A stretch of DNA of 30,860 bases from a virus: the IMG/VR virus record IMGVR_UViG_3300009506_000270, positions 1 through 30,860 of that record. One strand, given 5' to 3'. Positions within the stretch are counted from its first letter, which is position 1. Each line of letters begins with the position of its first letter. The notes under the pieces are model-generated. The model was given only the letters and a program-made list of their open reading frames with translations. It had not been told where the DNA came from and did no database searches. This document shows positions 15,790 to 27,642 of the stretch, in pieces. Position numbers and translations under genes: made by a program.

Positions 15790-16269
15790 CTAATCCCCCC
15801 GATGCTGCACGCTGACAGCATCATACACGTCGCCAGCACCGTCGCGAGTGAGACCGATGTACGAGCCATTGTCAGCAGCCCCGATCTTCAAGGGTATGAT
15901 GTCCAGCGAGAGCGGCAGCGAGGGCCGCAGCGCTGCGAAAGGGTCGGACAGCGGCACCTCCGGTGCCGCCTGCTTCTCCAGCGTCTTCTCCAGCATAGCC
16001 AGCGCACGCCATGCCACCTTGGCAAGATGGGGCACGCCGTCCGTATCCATAGGCACGTTGGCCGCATGGTCGGTGAGGTGTCGCATCAGGGCATCCAGCT
16101 CGTCCCCCGACTTACTGCGATCCCAATGGAGCGGGGAGCCGGGGTTGTGCTGGTCGTTGCCGATCTTTGAGAGACGAGCCACTTCTGCCAGCGCGTTGGG
16201 AAAGTAGGCAATGCAGCCTGAGTAGATCGGGATTGCTTTGCGTTCTTGTGCATCAGTAGGTAAACTCAT
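15790..16269 (-). CDS. dATP/dGTP diphosphohydrolase N-terminal-domain (DUF5664-type) protein
   Basis: The 159-aa protein has the pattern RKAIPIYSGCIAYFPNALAEVA, then SKIGNDQHNPGSPLHW, then DALMRHL and PHLAKVAWRALAMLE (about residues 11-99). This matches a small helical phage domain annotated as dATP/dGTP diphosphohydrolase, N-terminal. A link to nucleotide-pool management is family knowledge and uncertain; no catalytic proof is visible here. The last 50 residues look unlike the domain and are probably flexible. It overlaps the upstream gene by ATGA, and its stop lies within the ribosome site of the holin-like gene. Confidence 0.65.
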   Translation of the reverse strand: MSLPTDAQERKAIPIYSGCIAYFPNALAEVARLSKIGNDQHNPGSPLHWDRSKSGDELDALMRHLTDHAANVPMDTDGVPHLAKVAWRALAMLEKTLEKQAAPEVPLSDPFAALRPSLPLSLDIIPLKIGAADNGSYIGLTRDGAGDVYDAVSVQHRGD

Positions 16270-20136: not shown

Positions 20137-20664
20137 TTACTTGCCCAAGAACGAGGACAGGGCAGACTTCTTCTGCGCCTGCTCGGGTTCCGGCTCCGGT
20201 TCCGGCTCGGGTTCAGGCTCGGGTTCCGGCTCCGGCTCGACTTCCTCCGGCGCACCCAGCTCGATCAGCCCCTTGACGTATGCGGTGAACAGGTCCGCAG
20301 TGCGCAGCGTCTTCTCGATGTTCTCCGCGTAGTCGCCGACCAGCTCGTTGCTTCCGGTCAGGAACTTGATGGACTCCTCCAGCGCAGTCGTGCGCATGAT
20401 CTCGTCCGGGCTGCGGAAGTCGCTGGCCTTGGCACCGCTCTTGAAACCGCCGCCACCACCGCTGCTGCCCTTGGTGATCTTGACGGACTTCTCGTCGCAG
20501 TTGATGAACCGACCGTTGCGGCTGAAGTCAGCCTCAAGCGTATCGCCCTTTGCCACGTCGCCGAAGGCGCTGGCGTTGCGGACAGTGTACCACTCGTCAT
20601 TGACCTTGACGCCCTTGCGGTCGCCACGCACTGCCTGCACTGTGCCCTTGATGTGCTCGCTCAT
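20137..20664 (-). CDS. OB-fold single-stranded-DNA-binding-like protein
   Basis: The 175-aa protein has an N-terminal beta-rich domain (IKGTVQAVRGDRKGVKVND to about residue 64) that looks like a small OB fold. A Gly/Ser linker (SSGGGGGFKSG) and a helical segment follow, then 19 residues of alternating Glu-Pro and a short basic end (KKSALSSFLGK). An OB domain with an acidic flexible tail is the general plan of phage ssDNA-binding proteins, and it sits between polymerase and exonuclease genes, which fits. The classic SSB acidic tip is not present, so the assignment is tentative. It shares ATGA with the polymerase gene. Confidence 0.65.
   Translation of the reverse strand: MSEHIKGTVQAVRGDRKGVKVNDEWYTVRNASAFGDVAKGDTLEADFSRNGRFINCDEKSVKITKGSSGGGGGFKSGAKASDFRSPDEIMRTTALEESIKFLTGSNELVGDYAENIEKTLRTADLFTAYVKGLIELGAPEEVEPEPEPEPEPEPEPEPEPEQAQKKSALSSFLGK
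20182..20238 (-). repeat. Glu-Pro coding tract
   Basis: Fifty-seven bases encode nine Glu-Pro pairs plus one Glu. The DNA is a varied 6-bp repeat (combinations of GGTTCC, GGCTCC and GGCTCG on the plus strand), so its length may vary between relatives through slippage. Confidence 0.8.
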
Positions 20665-22697
20665 ACTGTTATGGTCTCCATGTTACGCCAGTTCACACCG
20701 ACATCTACGTCGGCGCTGATTGGCACGTTGAAGTCTACACCCCACGTGTCCTTAAGGACAGATATGGGATACGTGATGAAGTGTTCCCGCAGGCTTGCGC
20801 CCAATGTTGGCAGGTCGACCCAGCTTGGAACATCGAAGATCACTGAGTCGTGAACAGTGTTGACCAGCAGCACGGGTTCGGCCTCGGGGAAGATGCTGTT
20901 GAACGCGGCTACCTTGGCCCGCAGTTCGGACAGTATCATCTTGAGGATGTCTGCTGAGAAACCCTGTATGGGGTAGTTCTTGATGCACGTAGGCTTGTAG
21001 TCCTTGTGACCGTTGAAGTCGTCCTGAAAGAAGCGGTACTCCACACCGATCGGCGTAGTGAGTATACCGCAGGTCCTTCCGTCGCGAACTCGCGTGGACT
21101 TCTTGACCTCAGCGATCCAAGCCTCTTGGGTCTTGGGCACGTTCGGGTAGTTGGCGTCTTCCGCATCCATGAACGCTTGCACCTCGGCCTTCGACAGGCC
21201 GGTGGTGGCGCTTATCTTCTTAACTCCCGCGCCGTATGCCTTCTGGAACGATACGATCTTTGCGCCCTTCCTGATCTTTGACCAGTGCTTGTGTTGCGGA
21301 TGTGTGTTGTCGTCTACTGCCTGCTTCACCTCCCAATAGTCTGCGCTGTGTGCGAACGCTGCACGCTTCGAGTGAAAGTCGATACCGTTCTCGATGTCGT
21401 GGATCATGTTGGTATCAGCAGACAGGAACGCCTGCACCACCACTTCGATCTGCGACAGGTCTACCTCCATTAGGTGCCCGTCCTTGTACCGTGACGTGAA
21501 GTGCTCACGGATGGGACTATGCCCGGCGTTCTGCAGGTTAGGGTTGGTGCTGGACAACCGGCCCGTCGCTGTGATGGCGTGGTTCAGGTTCCCGTGAATC
21601 ATCCCGTCGCTCCACGTCAGCTCGGCATAGCCGGTGAAGTAGGTGCGCTCCTGCTTCTGCCCATCCCTGAAGTTGATTACCTCTTGAAGGAAGTCCTGTA
21701 AGTCTTGCGGGCACTTCGCATGCTCCATGATCTTGCCCAGCGCTTCCTCGTCGCTGCCCTCCAGAATGAGCGGAGAGAATGGCTTATCAATGATGCGCTC
21801 GAACTCCTGCCACTTCTTCCGGGGTTCGCCCTTCTGCTTGCCAGACTTGAAGTAGACCGGAGTGCCGTTCTCGTCGAGCATCGGGTGTTGCTCCTTCCAC
21901 TTGACCACACCCCCATAGAGCACTGACTTGAGGAACGATGGCGAGCCGGGGTTAATAGCAGTGACAGGGAGATCAAACACTTTCGATCCCAGCGCGATGG
22001 CATTCTTCTCCGCCTGCTCTCGGAGCGGGGCAATAACTTCATCTCTCACCTTCAATGCAACGTCTGCCTCGAAGTGCATGCCGTTCAGTTCCATGACCAG
22101 CGTAGTGAGGCGGGACTTCATCTCGATCCGCAGCATGTCAAGCATGCCACGGGCCTGTGCCTGCATCAGTTGATCCTTGAACAGGGCAGCCGTGGACCGC
22201 ACGTCATGCTTCAGATACGGCTCTACTTCTTCATCGGGTATCTCCTCTGTACTGATCCCGGCCTGCCAGTACTCTTTCATCTTGCCGGGCTTAAGGTCCC
22301 ACCCGCGCCTCTCGCAGCACGAGTCGAGTGACGGACTGATCTCGGTCTGTCCACTCAGCCGGTACTCTGCAATCTGAGTATCCCAGATCAGTGAGTCGGG
22401 ATGATTGAGCCAGTCGATCCATTCCTGCCTGCTCTTGTTGGTTCCATTGCACAAGTGCAGGATGTCGAACCCTACGTTATGGCCGATGATCAGGTGATCG
22501 GTGCCGGGGCAGTGAATGTCAACGTCCTTAGGGACAGCGAACTTCATGGTTGCTGGCCTGCCGGGATTGAAGTCTGAGTCAAGCGCGACCACGCCCAGCC
22601 ACACGATCCAGTTGTCTCGGCACATCGGATGCGCGAGGAACTTCCCGACCTCCCGATTCTTCAGGCTCGTCTCGGTGTCCAGCACGAATGGTGTCAT
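20661..22697 (-). CDS. DNA polymerase, family A, with 3'-5' exonuclease
   Basis: The 678-aa protein is the replicative polymerase. The proofreading domain has Exo I (D7, E9 in VLDTETS), Exo II (N74 and D78 in GHNVGFD) and Exo III (Y161xxxD165). The polymerase domain has TATGRLSSTNPNLQN (376-390), motif A D413LSQIE, the O-helix R476/K480/F484/Y488 (FQ in place of the usual FG), and motif C VHDS (H616, D617, S618), where the common HDE has Ser for Glu. The length suits a T7-like phage polymerase. Two dispersed palindromes lie inside, at V55-D58 (VPKD) and V647-D650 (VLKD). It overlaps neighbours by ATGA on both sides. Confidence 0.95.
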   Translation of the reverse strand: MTPFVLDTETSLKNREVGKFLAHPMCRDNWIVWLGVVALDSDFNPGRPATMKFAVPKDVDIHCPGTDHLIIGHNVGFDILHLCNGTNKSRQEWIDWLNHPDSLIWDTQIAEYRLSGQTEISPSLDSCCERRGWDLKPGKMKEYWQAGISTEEIPDEEVEPYLKHDVRSTAALFKDQLMQAQARGMLDMLRIEMKSRLTTLVMELNGMHFEADVALKVRDEVIAPLREQAEKNAIALGSKVFDLPVTAINPGSPSFLKSVLYGGVVKWKEQHPMLDENGTPVYFKSGKQKGEPRKKWQEFERIIDKPFSPLILEGSDEEALGKIMEHAKCPQDLQDFLQEVINFRDGQKQERTYFTGYAELTWSDGMIHGNLNHAITATGRLSSTNPNLQNAGHSPIREHFTSRYKDGHLMEVDLSQIEVVVQAFLSADTNMIHDIENGIDFHSKRAAFAHSADYWEVKQAVDDNTHPQHKHWSKIRKGAKIVSFQKAYGAGVKKISATTGLSKAEVQAFMDAEDANYPNVPKTQEAWIAEVKKSTRVRDGRTCGILTTPIGVEYRFFQDDFNGHKDYKPTCIKNYPIQGFSADILKMILSELRAKVAAFNSIFPEAEPVLLVNTVHDSVIFDVPSWVDLPTLGASLREHFITYPISVLKDTWGVDFNVPISADVDVGVNWRNMETITV
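20748..20759. repeat. Dispersed palindrome, copy 6
   Basis: GTCCTTAAGGAC, a perfect palindrome, in frame as V-L-K-D at residues 647-650 of the DNA polymerase, close to its C-terminus. Confidence 0.9.
22524..22535. repeat. Dispersed palindrome, copy 7
   Basis: GTCCTTAGGGAC, exact, in frame as V-P-K-D at residues 55-58 of the DNA polymerase, between Exo I and Exo II. Confidence 0.9.
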
Positions 22698-22876: not shown

Positions 22877-23016
22877 CGTGCTACACCTATGGTGCGCAAG
22901 GCCCGCCTCATCATCTGCGCAAGCCGGTGTGAACTGGTGCCGTAGTACTCGGCATCATCCAGCCGTTGCAGTATGCCCGAGAACTCGGCGCACTTACGTT
23001 CAAGTAACTTAGTCAT
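22873..23016 (-). CDS. Very small protein between helicase and 60-aa gene
   Basis: This 47-aa frame (MTKLLERKCAEFSGILQRLDD start, ending RTIGVAR) fills the only gap between its neighbours. Its ATG lies 8 bp inside the end of the helicase gene and its TGA forms an ATGA with the next start, exactly as at other junctions in this operon. The product is charged and helical with no motif. I include it because of the fit, not because I recognise it. Confidence 0.6.
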   Translation of the reverse strand: MTKLLERKCAEFSGILQRLDDAEYYGTSSHRLAQMMRRALRTIGVAR

Positions 23017-24277
23017 CGAACCTCCCCTTGTCGAAGTTGGGCGTCACCTCAAAGAATCCATGCCGCAGTGCCCGGTCTCCGGGTGTCGGCAGTTTGTTCT
23101 TAGGGACATAAAGGTAACGCATCTGTGGTAGGTTCAAGTCCCTGCCTATGGTGACAATGGCGTCAAGCTCACCCTGCACAGCCTGCTGTGATCCTGCGAG
23201 CTGGTGCATCTCGATCTTGGTACAGCCGTTGGCGTCGCCGCGTGCTTGATGTACCGCGATCACAGGGCAGTTCTGCTTCGCGAGCTGCCGTCCATACTCG
23301 AAGATGTCCTGCAGTTGGCCCAGCTTGTCATCACCGTACCGCTTGAAGCCCCGTATCTTATAGAGCTGGTCGAACACCATCAGCCCTACGTCATACTCAC
23401 GCAGCTTCTTGCGGATCACGCCGGGAGTAATCGGGGACTTCTCGCTGTCCACCACGATCACCTTGTCCGCGTCTCCACCCATCTGCTTCGTGTAGTTGCG
23501 CTCGGCCAGCTCCATGTTGCGCTCGATGTCCTCCAGCGTCCAGCCAATAGCAGACTGGATGATGCGCATCTTGACCGTCTCCCCCTCCTCCTCGTTATTG
23601 AAGTAGATCACCTTCTTGCCGGGCGGTAACTGCGTTGCCATATAGCTCGTCTCTTGTGCGGCGAGCGTTGACTTACCACTATCCACGAACCCGGCCAACA
23701 TCACGAAGTTGCCCTTGCGTATGGGACCAAGAGCCGACTCGATGCTCGGACTGCGCCAGTGTAGACCGTTGGCTAGGTTGGTCAGCTTCGATACCATCGT
23801 GCGCAGATCAGCAGTGACCTCGTTGCTATGCTGGTGATGCAGCCCGGCCTCAGTCTCCGCCTGTTCCACGTCGTCCACGATCTCGTCGAACAGTGGGAAG
23901 CTGGTATCGCCCGCACTGAAGCGGTCACACTTCTCTGCGATGCGGCCAGCATGGTCCCTAAGGACAAGAGACCGCAGCACCTCGGAAGCGTTGGCTCCAT
24001 TCGCCGCCTCGATTGCCCGCTTGATCAGTTCCTTGAACGCGGTGATCTTATCGTGTGCCCAGCCGACGTGCTGCACCAGCTTACAGAACTCCCAGAACAC
24101 GTCGATGTTGTCGGGCACTATGTTAGTAGCATGCGGATGCTTCGCGTACCAAGACGCAATGTCCTCGATAATGATCTTAGTCTCACCCTCCAGCAGGTGC
24201 TCGGGTGTTGTACCTGAGTATCGCTCGAACACATCACGCTTGGTCAAGAACAACCCGACCAGTGCGCTGTCGCTCAT
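23009..24277 (-). CDS. Replicative DNA helicase (RecA-fold, DnaB-like)
   Basis: I chose ATG 24277, preceded by GGGAGGAG. The 422-aa product has an N-terminal helical region (about 1-170) and a RecA-fold ATPase domain. The latter has Walker A G196FVDSGKST204, NNEEEGE after the next strand (Glu at 229-231 as candidate catalytic residue), Walker B LMVFD303, and the AVHQARG motif (H343, Q344) that is typical of DnaB-type helicases. It should unwind DNA ahead of the family A polymerase, working with the separate TOPRIM primase. Palindrome copy 9 encodes VLRD (105-108) and the near copy 8 encodes VPKN (391-394). Confidence 0.85.
   Translation of the reverse strand: MSDSALVGLFLTKRDVFERYSGTTPEHLLEGETKIIIEDIASWYAKHPHATNIVPDNIDVFWEFCKLVQHVGWAHDKITAFKELIKRAIEAANGANASEVLRSLVLRDHAGRIAEKCDRFSAGDTSFPLFDEIVDDVEQAETEAGLHHQHSNEVTADLRTMVSKLTNLANGLHWRSPSIESALGPIRKGNFVMLAGFVDSGKSTLAAQETSYMATQLPPGKKVIYFNNEEEGETVKMRIIQSAIGWTLEDIERNMELAERNYTKQMGGDADKVIVVDSEKSPITPGVIRKKLREYDVGLMVFDQLYKIRGFKRYGDDKLGQLQDIFEYGRQLAKQNCPVIAVHQARGDANGCTKIEMHQLAGSQQAVQGELDAIVTIGRDLNLPQMRYLYVPKNKLPTPGDRALRHGFFEVTPNFDKGRFDD
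23096..23107. repeat. Dispersed palindrome, copy 8 (one mismatch)
   Basis: GTTCTTAGGGAC, one base from consensus, in frame as V-P-K-N at residues 391-394 of the helicase. The frame agrees with all exact coding copies, so I count it as a degenerate member. Confidence 0.65.
23954..23965. repeat. Dispersed palindrome, copy 9
   Basis: GTCCCTAAGGAC, exact, in frame as V-L-R-D at residues 105-108 of the helicase, in its N-terminal region. Confidence 0.9.
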
Positions 24278-24467
24278 GTCTCCTCCCACTCCGCGTCTTC
24301 CTCCGCGGATCGAGTGCGGACTGCTGATCGTACAACTCCTGCTCGTCATTCATGTAGTCGGGCAGGTCGTCGGCGATGTAGTCAAGGCTGAAGGCGTGTG
24401 CCAGTGCGTCCTCGTCTGGCCCGCCATACTCGTCGGGTACTTCATGCCACGGTGTCTTGCCGATCAT
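24234..24467 (-). CDS. Small acidic protein of unknown function
   Basis: I chose ATG 24467 because it shares ATGA with the upstream gene and GAGGAG is close before it; the longer frame to 24626 lies over that gene. The 77-aa product begins MIGKTPWHEVPDEYGGPDED and is very acidic (ADDLPDYMNDEQELYD) until residue 53. Its last 24 residues are basic and come from DNA overlapping the helicase start by 44 bp. No motif recognised. A helicase loader or inhibitor of host function is conceivable but has no support beyond adjacency. Confidence 0.6.
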   Translation of the reverse strand: MIGKTPWHEVPDEYGGPDEDALAHAFSLDYIADDLPDYMNDEQELYDQQSALDPRRKTRSGRRHERQRTGRVVLDQA

Positions 24468-26036: not shown

Positions 26037-26195
26037 TTATTGCTCCTCTACCGCACGCTTCGGGATATGAATCGTGGCACGCACCACATACTCGTCGCCC
26101 TCCTCCCACACATCCTCATACCAATTGTCGCCGACATTGATGCGGGTGTCGCATTCGTAGGCAAAGCGGGCAAGTTTCAATGCTTCGCTTTTCAT
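26037..26195 (-). CDS. Very small acidic protein
   Basis: A 52-aa frame (MKSEALKLARFAYECDTRIN start, then YEDVWEEGDEYVVRATIHIP) begins with an ATG that shares ATGA with the HD-protein stop and ends 2 bp before the next ATG. The sequence has the look of a small alpha-beta fold with a conserved-seeming WEEGDEY turn. It fills what would otherwise be a 157-bp gap. No family recognised. Confidence 0.65.
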   Translation of the reverse strand: MKSEALKLARFAYECDTRINVGDNWYEDVWEEGDEYVVRATIHIPKRAVEEQ

Positions 26196-26770
26196 CGGTT
26201 CATCTCCAGTATCAGGGTCGCCAGCTCCCGCAGCTCGGGACGGGCCAGCGTCAGGTTGTTTACAAGGCGGGCCTTCTCGCGCAGATACACTACTGAGAAG
26301 TCCGGGTCATATCGTGTGATGCTGCATGAGTTATCGCACAGGTCCGCCATCTTGATCGTCTGTACCTCCCAGCACTCTTGGCTGAGACGTACCCGCTCCG
26401 CATCCTTGCGTGTCTGTCGGTTGCCATGCACCTTCGGGTCAGTGTACACATCAGTCAGCCCTTTGACGAAGCGAGCCACTCGAAAGCTGAAGTGCTCGGC
26501 TATGTCGGCCTGCGTGACGTGCGTGTCCTCGACCACATCATGCAGATACGCGGCCTCAATCATGTCGATGTCTGGAAATACCTCGGCAACGAGGCGGGCC
26601 ACATTCATTGGATGCACGATGTATGGATCGTTTGTGTACTTACGGGTCTGCCAGCCATGCGCCTCGGCTGCAAACCGCAGCGCATGATCCAATGCCTCCG
26701 GCGAACGCGGCAGCACCTCACGGTGCCACCGTTCCTGATCCTCGATCAGTGCTAGTGTTTGCTCGTTCAT
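26192..26770 (-). CDS. HD-domain protein, (p)ppGpp hydrolase-like (SpoT/MESH1 type)
   Basis: The 192-aa protein matches the hydrolase half of RelA/SpoT-type enzymes: AAEAHGWQTRKYTNDPYIVHPMNVA (H38, H53), AAYLHDVVEDT (H77, D78, E81, D82), FSFRVARFVKGLTDV, then a late KMADLCDN (D143). These are the metal-binding and nucleotide-site residues of MESH1/SpoT HD domains. There is no synthetase or TGS domain, so it would be a small stand-alone hydrolase that lowers (p)ppGpp or a related nucleotide, possibly blocking the host stringent response. Substrate is inference. It shares ATGA with the ligase gene upstream and the 52-aa gene downstream. Confidence 0.8.
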   Translation of the reverse strand: MNEQTLALIEDQERWHREVLPRSPEALDHALRFAAEAHGWQTRKYTNDPYIVHPMNVARLVAEVFPDIDMIEAAYLHDVVEDTHVTQADIAEHFSFRVARFVKGLTDVYTDPKVHGNRQTRKDAERVRLSQECWEVQTIKMADLCDNSCSITRYDPDFSVVYLREKARLVNNLTLARPELRELATLILEMNR

Positions 26771-27642
26771 AAATCCCTCGCATCTCTGAAACCAATGAAC
26801 ACGGGGAAGCGCGGCTTGTCTTTCATTCCGCTTGGCTGGTACTTGAACTTCACCAGCTTGCCCCGCAGTTGCGGACGGTTGTACCAGATCATTGTGCGGG
26901 TAGCCTCGTCAAACCCGCTGCCAACTTCGAGCTGCCCCCACTGTGTATCCAGCACCAGCGCACCCAGCGTGTCCTTAGGGACAAGTCCTTCCTTCGACAT
27001 GCCACGCTTGCCCGTCACGGGGTCGGGTGGGTTGGTGTTCTCCATCTGTTCCACGTAACCCACGATCTTACCCTCGGCGTCCTCGAAGCGCTTGACCTTG
27101 AGCAGGATGCCCTCGTTCATGGTGCTGCGTCCCGCCTTGTATCTGCCTCCGGGGTCGCGGATCATTACACCCTCGTACCCATGCTGCACACAATACTCCT
27201 CGAACTCAGCCAGCTCGTCCGGGTTACTGCACCACACCTGCGGAATGACCTTTACGAACTCGTTACCTTCCACCTGATTCTTTGCAGCGTCTATGCGTGT
27301 AGTGAACTCCGCATCTATCACACCATCTCCGATGTGGTCGAAGACAAGGAACTCGAAGTGCGGAGTCCCAGTCCTGCGCATCACATCACCACTGCACACA
27401 TTGAAGGGATTTACTTGTCCGTCTTCATTCAGCGTCACAAGTTCACCATCAAGATTGGCAGCATTGTACATCGACTGCAGGGTATTGCGAATGAAGTCAT
27501 TGGCAATGGGTTTAAGATTACGGGACAGAGCTACGCCTTTGTAGGTCACGCATCTGATACCGTCCAGCTTCGGAGAAGCAAGTACAGGATACTTCACTTT
27601 CTCCAGTACAGCATTAACAGCAAGCAATGGTTTACTGAACAT
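26767..27642 (-). CDS. ATP-dependent DNA ligase
   Basis: The 291-aa protein has all core motifs of small ATP-dependent ligases: motif I K25LDG (Lys25 receives AMP), SRNLKPI, LDGEL (E67), FLVFDHI, YEGVMIRDP (motif IV), LLKVKRF (motif V), then an OB-like domain. It lacks the extra N-terminal DNA-binding domain of larger ligases, as in T7-like phage enzymes. It seals nicks between Okazaki fragments. GGAG lies upstream of the ATG, and the GTAC repeat block lies just before it. Palindrome copy 11 encodes VPKD at residues 221-224, in the linker to the OB domain. Confidence 0.9.
   Translation of the reverse strand: MFSKPLLAVNAVLEKVKYPVLASPKLDGIRCVTYKGVALSRNLKPIANDFIRNTLQSMYNAANLDGELVTLNEDGQVNPFNVCSGDVMRRTGTPHFEFLVFDHIGDGVIDAEFTTRIDAAKNQVEGNEFVKVIPQVWCSNPDELAEFEEYCVQHGYEGVMIRDPGGRYKAGRSTMNEGILLKVKRFEDAEGKIVGYVEQMENTNPPDPVTGKRGMSKEGLVPKDTLGALVLDTQWGQLEVGSGFDEATRTMIWYNRPQLRGKLVKFKYQPSGMKDKPRFPVFIGFRDARDL
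26971..26982. repeat. Dispersed palindrome, copy 11
   Basis: GTCCTTAGGGAC, exact, in frame as V-P-K-D at residues 221-224 of the DNA ligase. Confidence 0.9.

What the first reader, a model, noticed from the sequence alone, without database searches (positions are those of the whole stretch)
26192..26770. Phage-encoded (p)ppGpp-hydrolase-like enzyme in the replication operon
The protein keeps HD, ED and the late Asp of SpoT/MESH1 hydrolases without a synthetase half. In this setting it might remove host alarmones (or an immune signalling nucleotide) to keep replication going under starvation or defence. Small hydrolases of this kind are less often noted in short-tailed phages than MazG proteins.
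Basis: partly seen in the sequence, partly recalled or inferred. Interest (0 to 1): 0.5.

Follow-up and report, generated by a model that had tools for sequence, protein, structure and literature searches.

The report
Phage-borne small alarmone hydrolase
A small, probably short-tailed phage carries a well-preserved enzyme of a known kind that strips pyrophosphate from stress or toxin-made molecules in its host, and relatives joined to tRNA-repair enzymes hint that damaged tRNA, not only the stress signal ppGpp, may be what it cleans up.

Summary
Confirmed: the minus-strand ORF 26192-26770 (192 aa) encodes a complete small alarmone hydrolase (SAH). R43, H53, H77-D78, E81-D82, D143 and N147 are present. 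The AlphaFold2 model (pLDDT 94) superposes on human MESH1 at 1.7 Å (Z 23.9). No synthetase domain was found. The gene overlaps the DNA ligase stop inside the replication block.

The kind is known: PHROG 990, matches in 338 of 50,697 phage records, and a tested relative, PaSpo of phage SSU5 (48% over 138 aa). A short-tailed host phage would be unusual, but is only inferred.

The substrate is open. PaSpo is reported to remove the pyrophosphate that FaRel2 puts on tRNA. In metagenomic viral contigs I found SAH fused in one ORF with a CCA-adding tRNA nucleotidyltransferase and usually a HAD phosphatase, motifs intact (11 fused ORFs, 3 clusters). SAH lay near or in 4 of 17 CCA-enzyme clusters against 0 of 116 random viral loci, though the clusters were found starting from one fused protein. 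Phage SAHs may thus serve tRNA 3'-end repair against toxSAS/CapRel-type defence. For the window this is inference: its record shows no CCA enzyme or tRNA gene. Verdict: new member of a known kind; the fusion is the better lead.

The parts
26192..26770 (-). Small alarmone hydrolase (HD_4 / PHROG 990), 192 aa, single domain, all eight expected catalytic and ligand residues kept
26767..27642 (-). ATP-dependent DNA ligase, 291 aa; its TGA overlaps the SAH ATG (ATGA), which suggests translational coupling
   Evidence: Pfam DNA_ligase_A_M 3e-16 and OB 2.5e-11, PHROG 114 1.6e-61; overlap read; coupling inferred
26775..26779 (-). GAGGG, Shine-Dalgarno-like, 4 bases before the SAH ATG
   Evidence: Read directly from the sequence printed; function inferred
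26037..26195 (-). 52-aa ORF of unknown function directly downstream, again with an ATGA overlap (26195-26192)
   Evidence: Frame read
23009..24349 (-). DnaB-like replicative helicase on the same strand (context)
   Evidence: PHROG 19 7.8e-46
20661..22697 (-). Family A DNA polymerase (context)
   Evidence: PF00476 4.3e-43

Best explanation
The gene encodes an active, metal-dependent (by family, Mn2+) small alarmone hydrolase, made together with the phage ligase and replication proteins. It removes the 3'-pyrophosphate that host RelA/SpoT-type enzymes or related toxins place on a 3'-hydroxyl. I think its most likely use is counter-defence: undoing the products of toxic small alarmone synthetases (toxSAS/CapRel type), above all the pyrophosphorylated CCA ends of tRNA and possibly (p)ppApp, so that translation continues in the infected cell; it would degrade (p)ppGpp as well. 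Shown here: gene, position, predicted fold, catalytic residues, kinship to PaSpo, and fusion or close linkage of related phage SAH domains with CCA-adding enzymes. Inferred: catalytic activity, co-expression, the order of substrates, and the benefit to this phage.
For: Fold and residues. [quoted passage not shown] the SAHs of phages SSU5 and PVP-SE1 are reported to relieve FaRel toxicity (PMC7644958, passage). Linkage: single ORFs of 1122-1428 aa (stop to stop) join SAH to a CCA-adding enzyme; three scanned with Pfam carry the head and RNA-binding domains and an NT5C/HAD phosphatase domain. In 11 of 11 fused ORFs of the second CCA set, several of them near-copies, twelve checked SAH residues equal the window's. 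In that set 14 of 80 loci (4 of 17 clusters at 80% identity, 3 of these fused) carry SAH, versus 0 of 116 random viral loci (Fisher p 1.9e-4 for clusters). In a 484-kb phage, SAH and a CCA-type enzyme lie about 2 kb apart.
Against: The link to tRNA is not shown for this phage. Its record shows no CCA-adding enzyme and no tRNA gene, though it is probably a fragment. Only 4 of 80 SAH-bearing viral records hold PF01743, against 0 of 80 random ones (p 0.06). The five enzymes behind the second CCA set were picked from hits of the fused protein L078, so the set leans towards relatives of its CCA domain, and its p value is only a guide. The random loci were shorter and not matched for genome size; SAH and CCA enzymes may both be commoner in large phages. 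The window protein lies on a long branch (1.16) outside the CCA-linked subclade of a softly resolved tree (43 of 95 inner branches under 80), so it could differ in substrate. PADLOC has no match for it.
Confidence: 0.5

Rival explanations
1. Plain (p)ppGpp hydrolase: it lowers host ppGpp during infection, keeping transcription, nucleotide synthesis and phage DNA replication going in starved or stressed cells.
For: The closest solved structures are MESH1 and SpoT/SAH enzymes; the gene sits in the replication block next to ligase, and in Agrobacterium phage OLIVR5 the SAH lies beside genes annotated as ssDNA-binding proteins; published prediction for jumbo phages (PMC7824862).
Against: The tested phage relatives are reported to undo toxSAS products, and fused partners of the family act on tRNA. 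Position beside replication genes is not a general rule: in the nine annotated phage loci I looked at, the neighbours of SAH are mostly hypothetical proteins.
Confidence: 0.35
2. A different substrate: (p)ppApp only, NADPH, PAPS or another 3'-phosphorylated nucleotide, serving nucleotide or cofactor salvage.
For: MESH1 is solved with NADPH and PAPS; SAHs differ in base preference and no clear residue rule predicts it (PMC7644958 and PMC9765508, passages).
Against: None of the window proteins I scanned was named as a sulphur or NAD enzyme, but this was not a dedicated search; NADPH-motif residues were not tested.
Confidence: 0.1
3. Antitoxin half of a phage-borne toxSAS toxin-antitoxin pair.
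For: Such SAH antitoxins exist (ATfaRel, PMC11782079, passage).
Against: No match to the synthetase domain PF04607 in the 30,860-base record, while the same search rings in 11 of 14 control genomes; the neighbours are ligase and a 52-aa ORF.
Confidence: 0.05

Closest known systems
PaSpo, SAH of Salmonella phage SSU5 (phage-type SAH)
   Same: Single-domain HD hydrolase, 48% identical over 138 aa, all eight catalytic positions shared, phage-encoded
   Different: SSU5 is a 103-kb phage and its SAH is longer (213 aa); the window gene sits in a replication block of what is probably a small, short-tailed phage
MESH1 (HDDC3) and bacterial SAHs such as RelH of Corynebacterium and SAH of Pseudomonas aeruginosa
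   Same: Same predicted fold (Z about 21-24, 1.7-2.4 Å); the HD, ED and late-Asp motifs align with MESH1
   Different: Only 22-30% identity; the phage-type group has its own GNRxxR (116-121) and I151/D155/F158 positions, kept in 89-91 of 91 aligned rows
Hydrolase domain of long RelA/SpoT/Rel enzymes
   Same: N-terminal hydrolase region matches
   Different: No synthetase or regulatory domains; the six long-RSH rows in the tree split from the phage-type SAHs with support 98
Phage MazG pyrophosphohydrolases
   Same: Also proposed to lower ppGpp in phages (passages)
   Different: Unrelated fold (recalled); the same passages report phage MazG preferring dGTP and dCTP

Membership tests
Small alarmone hydrolase (SAH) | RSH-type HD-domain fold over the whole protein | tested here: met
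   HD_4 61.2 bits against cut-off 27.2; model pLDDT 94.4, the best structural matches are SAH/RSH enzymes
Small alarmone hydrolase (SAH) | Conserved hydrolase motifs: R, H...HD...ED...D, N (residue roles recalled from RelSeq/MESH1 work) | tested here: met
   R43, H53, H77, D78, E81, D82, D143, N147 present
Small alarmone hydrolase (SAH) | No synthetase or regulatory domain in the protein | tested here: met
   192 aa, one domain; PF04607 has no match in the record
Small alarmone hydrolase (SAH) | Mn2+-dependent release of 3'-pyrophosphate | not testable with these tools
   Needs protein and assay
Phage-type SAH, PHROG 990 | Match to the family profile and to its members | tested here: met
   1.7e-35, residues 23-179; places among phage-type SAHs in the tree
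Full-length RelA/SpoT (TIGR00691) | Score above the curated cut-off of 499.2 bits | tested here: not met
   84.8 bits, positions 1-128 of 687 only
toxSAS toxin-antitoxin module | Synthetase toxin gene beside the SAH | tested here: not met
   No PF04607 match in the record; neighbours are ligase and a 52-aa ORF
SAH linked to CCA-adding enzyme (tRNA 3'-end repair) | CCA-adding enzyme fused to or near the SAH | tested here: inconclusive
   None in the window record, but it may be a fragment; seen in relatives
MESH1-type NADPH phosphatase | Nicotinamide-ribose interaction motif | not tested
   Motif not compared residue by residue

The most novel reading that the evidence does not exclude
Phage-type SAHs are primarily tRNA 3'-end repair enzymes rather than ppGpp phosphatases: they strip the pyrophosphate that CapRel/FaRel2-type defence toxins put on the CCA end. 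Some phages have built the whole repair line into one protein (SAH, CCA-adding enzyme, HAD phosphatase). The window phage would carry the stand-alone first step in a genome too small for the rest.
Probability: 0.35. Interest if true: 0.7.

Novelty: new member of a known kind. Interest (0 to 1): 0.45.

Why it matters
Phage SAHs are widespread, yet what they are for is mostly guessed from their kinship to SpoT. A minimal, intact copy in what is probably a small phage suggests that the function can be worth keeping in a small genome. The fused relatives offer a testable clue that the target is the tRNA 3' end, which would make this family a general answer to toxSAS/CapRel-type immunity rather than only a way to switch off the stringent response.

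Tried and rejected
These 80 were found through patterns RKYT.. and LHD.VE, so conservation of R43, K44, H77, D78 and E81 in them is partly built in; the nine-row alignment A1 was chosen by me from a tblastn list instead and gives the same answer, but is small. Megablast of bases 1-25000 (not the last 5,860) against phages: no match. Synteny: the SAH loci share only scattered single-gene matches with the window, so no close relative of this phage was found.

The first CCA-enzyme set used four query rows, all from SAH-bearing records (three with SAH fused or within about 2 kb); its 18 of 80 (four of the 18 are weak matches of 28-66 bits) is biased and I do not rest on it. The second set used five annotated phage enzymes that were not chosen by SAH, but they were taken from the hits of the fused L078 protein, so it still leans towards relatives of L078's CCA domain; it shares 15 loci with the first set and includes other cuts of the same contigs. 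The existence of the fusions does not depend on this; the rates and p values do. PF01743 was sought in 80 of the 116 random records only. Of the four SAH records with PF01743, L029 has its CCA gene about 27 kb away, and L044 and L049 are near-copies. Random loci were shorter (mean 9.4 kb) than the CCA loci (mean flank held 13.5 kb). 3 of 5 phages fetched for their CCA enzyme also hold a distant SAH-like match elsewhere (31-38 bits), but all three are 280-490 kb, so size may explain it. Ligase adjacency was not used as evidence: 10 of 80 SAH loci show a weak ligase match and several are near-copies. L042's 482-aa ORF was looked at and left unexplained. PADLOC: no match for the window protein.

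Literature: only passages were read of PMC11559606, PMC9712102, PMC12846349, PMC8515928, PMC7824862, PMC12671086, PMC9127768, PMC9765508, PMC7644958 and PMC11782079. Jimmy et al. 2020 (PMC7229694) is not held and is known here only through others. That I found no paper on the SAH-CCA fusion rests on two searches of the held library (0 papers; 3 papers, passages of two read, the third seen only in the listing).

Full report
WHAT IS THERE. The finding's coordinates hold a 192-aa minus-strand ORF. It is embedded in a tight minus-strand block: its ATG (26770) overlaps the TGA of an ATP-dependent DNA ligase (26767-27642), GAGGG lies four bases before it, and its own TGA overlaps the ATG of a 52-aa ORF (26037-26195). 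Primase-like, helicase, family A polymerase and exonuclease genes are on the same strand; structural genes (portal, major head protein, tail and tail-fibre matches, a 1171-aa protein with a C-terminal lysozyme-like match) are on the plus strand. The record is a linear IMG/VR virus record of 30,860 bases, often a fragment, so 'short-tailed' and 'small genome' are inferences. Capsid matches include cyanophages and Pelagibacter phages that I recall as podoviruses, but also Mycobacterium and Rhizobium phages; the polymerase's best matches are Vibrio phages such as ICP2.

WHAT THE PROTEIN IS. Pfam HD_4 (1.3e-16), PHROG 990 'metal-dependent phosphohydrolase' (1.7e-35), the N-terminal 128 positions of TIGR00691 RelA/SpoT (4.4e-24, far below that full-length model's cut-off), and human MESH1, Rel and SAH chains in the PDB by sequence. 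R43, H53, H77, D78, E81, D143 and N147 are identical in 9 of 9 rows (window and eight phage proteins), and D82 in 8 of 9 (the roles of these residues are recalled from RelSeq and MESH1 work). In a wider set of 91 rows (the window, its own copy L001 and 89 loci) the same eight are kept, D82 in 90 of 91, with the caveat that 80 of the rows were found by patterns containing some of them. AlphaFold2 from 46 rows (window and 45 viral proteins) gives pLDDT 94.4 and pTM 0.90. Foldseek and VIA-align put MESH1 first (Z 23.9, 1.7 Å, 167 residues, 30% identity), then bacterial SAHs and SpoT/Rel, with YpgQ-like HD enzymes well below (Z about 12). No synthetase domain was found in the record. It is an SAH by every test I could run; activity itself was not testable.

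HOW COMMON IT IS. 338 of 50,697 phage records match and at least 555 viral-contig stretches. Among the best isolates are Nonanavirus/Sashavirus coliphages (47-51% identity), Komagataeibacter phage phiKM1 and Salmonella phage SSU5. Of 60 records sampled evenly from the 338, 47 are 140 kb or longer, 4 are 47-78 kb and 9 are 26 kb or shorter; none is recognisable from its name as a podovirus. In a quick tree of 98 rows (20 of the 80 bacterial loci used) six long RSH enzymes are split from the phage-type SAHs with support 98; the window is on a long branch (1.16) beside viral contig L025 (support 91) and outside the CCA-linked subclade (support 93, eight rows); 43 of 95 inner branches are under 80. 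13 of the 80 bacterial loci score over 170 bits with the phage SAH profile; the other rows printed score 91-123 bits.

WHAT PHAGE SAHs MAY DO. Prior art in print: a prediction that HD-alarmone phosphodiesterases of jumbo phages target the alarmone (PMC7824862, passage); an SAH annotated in phage Adele (PMC12846349, passage). [quoted passage not shown]

THE UNEXPECTED LEAD. One of the 80 viral SAH loci, L078, is a single 1270-aa ORF with SAH near its N-terminus and a CCA-adding enzyme head plus RNA-binding domain further on. Looking from the CCA side, I found more such ORFs: 11 in the second set, 1122-1428 aa stop to stop, in contigs from 11 different IMG metagenome numbers. Three scanned with Pfam (L242, L243, L246) carry HD_4, PolyA_pol, PolyA_pol_RNAbd and a C-terminal NT5C (HAD) phosphatase. 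Motifs LHDTVED/KYADLISN and GGAVRD/DID(F/L)ATD/RRDLTYNA are intact in 7 of 7 printed, and DMDGVL in 6 of 7. 11 of 11 share the window's twelve checked SAH residues, several being near-copies of one another. In this second CCA set, drawn with five annotated phage enzymes, 14 of 80 loci (4 of 17 clusters at 80% identity) have SAH in the held flank: three clusters fused, one 3 kb away. In 116 random viral loci the same profile hits none; Fisher p is 1.9e-4 for clusters. The five query enzymes were not chosen by SAH but were taken from the hits of L078, so the set leans towards L078's kin and the p value is only a guide. From the SAH side, 4 of 80 records hold PF01743 against 0 of 80 random records (p 0.06). 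A 484-kb uncultured phage has SAH and a CCA-type enzyme about 2 kb apart. None of 575 matching phage records covered at least 80% of the L078 protein in one place, so the whole fusion was not seen in the isolate collection.

JUDGEMENT. For the window: a certain SAH gene, very probably active, in the replication block of a probably small and short-tailed phage; the kind is known. For mechanism I favour undoing toxSAS-type products, tRNA ends included (0.5), over pure ppGpp removal (0.35), because the tested relative is reported to do the former and the family's fused partners work on tRNA 3' ends. Against this: the window record shows no CCA enzyme and no tRNA gene, its protein is outside the CCA-linked subclade, 76 of 80 SAH records show no CCA enzyme, and the controls were neither matched for genome size nor free of an SAH-linked starting point.

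Noticed in passing
L242:8603-12250, L243:586-4020, L246:8339-12079, L419:3569-7852, L420:916-4281, L375:2817-6632 (all +): Single ORFs joining SAH, CCA-adding tRNA nucleotidyltransferase and (not seen in L375) a HAD-type phosphatase motif, with catalytic motifs intact; looks like a one-protein tRNA 3'-end repair line in metagenomic viral contigs.
   Followed up: partly
L091:1829-6687 (484-kb uncultured phage LR756508): Island with SAH and a CCA-type enzyme; between and before them ORFs that look like a Ro60/vWA-type protein and peptidyl-tRNA hydrolase 2 (these two names by eye, not by a call).
   Followed up: partly
L294:4974-6317, L299:4959-6374, L301:4941-6170 (bacterial contigs): Phage-type SAH domain followed by a Swt1-like HEPN domain (one just over the Pfam cut-off, two below it); HEPN domains often act on RNA (recalled).
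   Followed up: no
N-termini of ORFs in L078 (1673, 2056, 2823) and of the fused ORFs L242-L246: Short N-terminal peptides such as MRLHELTE, MKISDLTE and MRLHEFKIE recur and recall the capsid-targeting peptides of phage T4 internal proteins (recalled), so some of these enzymes might be packaged and injected.
   Followed up: no
L005:4971-5498 (phage TPWB-08): The only SAH of the nine-row alignment with Ala in place of the Asp of the ED motif (position 82).
   Followed up: no
L006:3839-4546 (Agrobacterium phage OLIVR5): The record annotates the (p)ppGpp hydrolase CDS on the opposite strand from where the protein match lies.
   Followed up: no
window 20137-20664 (-): Protein encoded between the polymerase and exonuclease genes with a long Glu-Pro repeat tail (PEPEPEPE...), perhaps a single-strand binding protein with an acidic tail.
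   Followed up: no
window 15790-16269 (-): Short protein matching part of PHROG 801 (dATP/dGTP pyrophosphohydrolase) and PHROG 27780; a possible second nucleotide enzyme.
   Followed up: no
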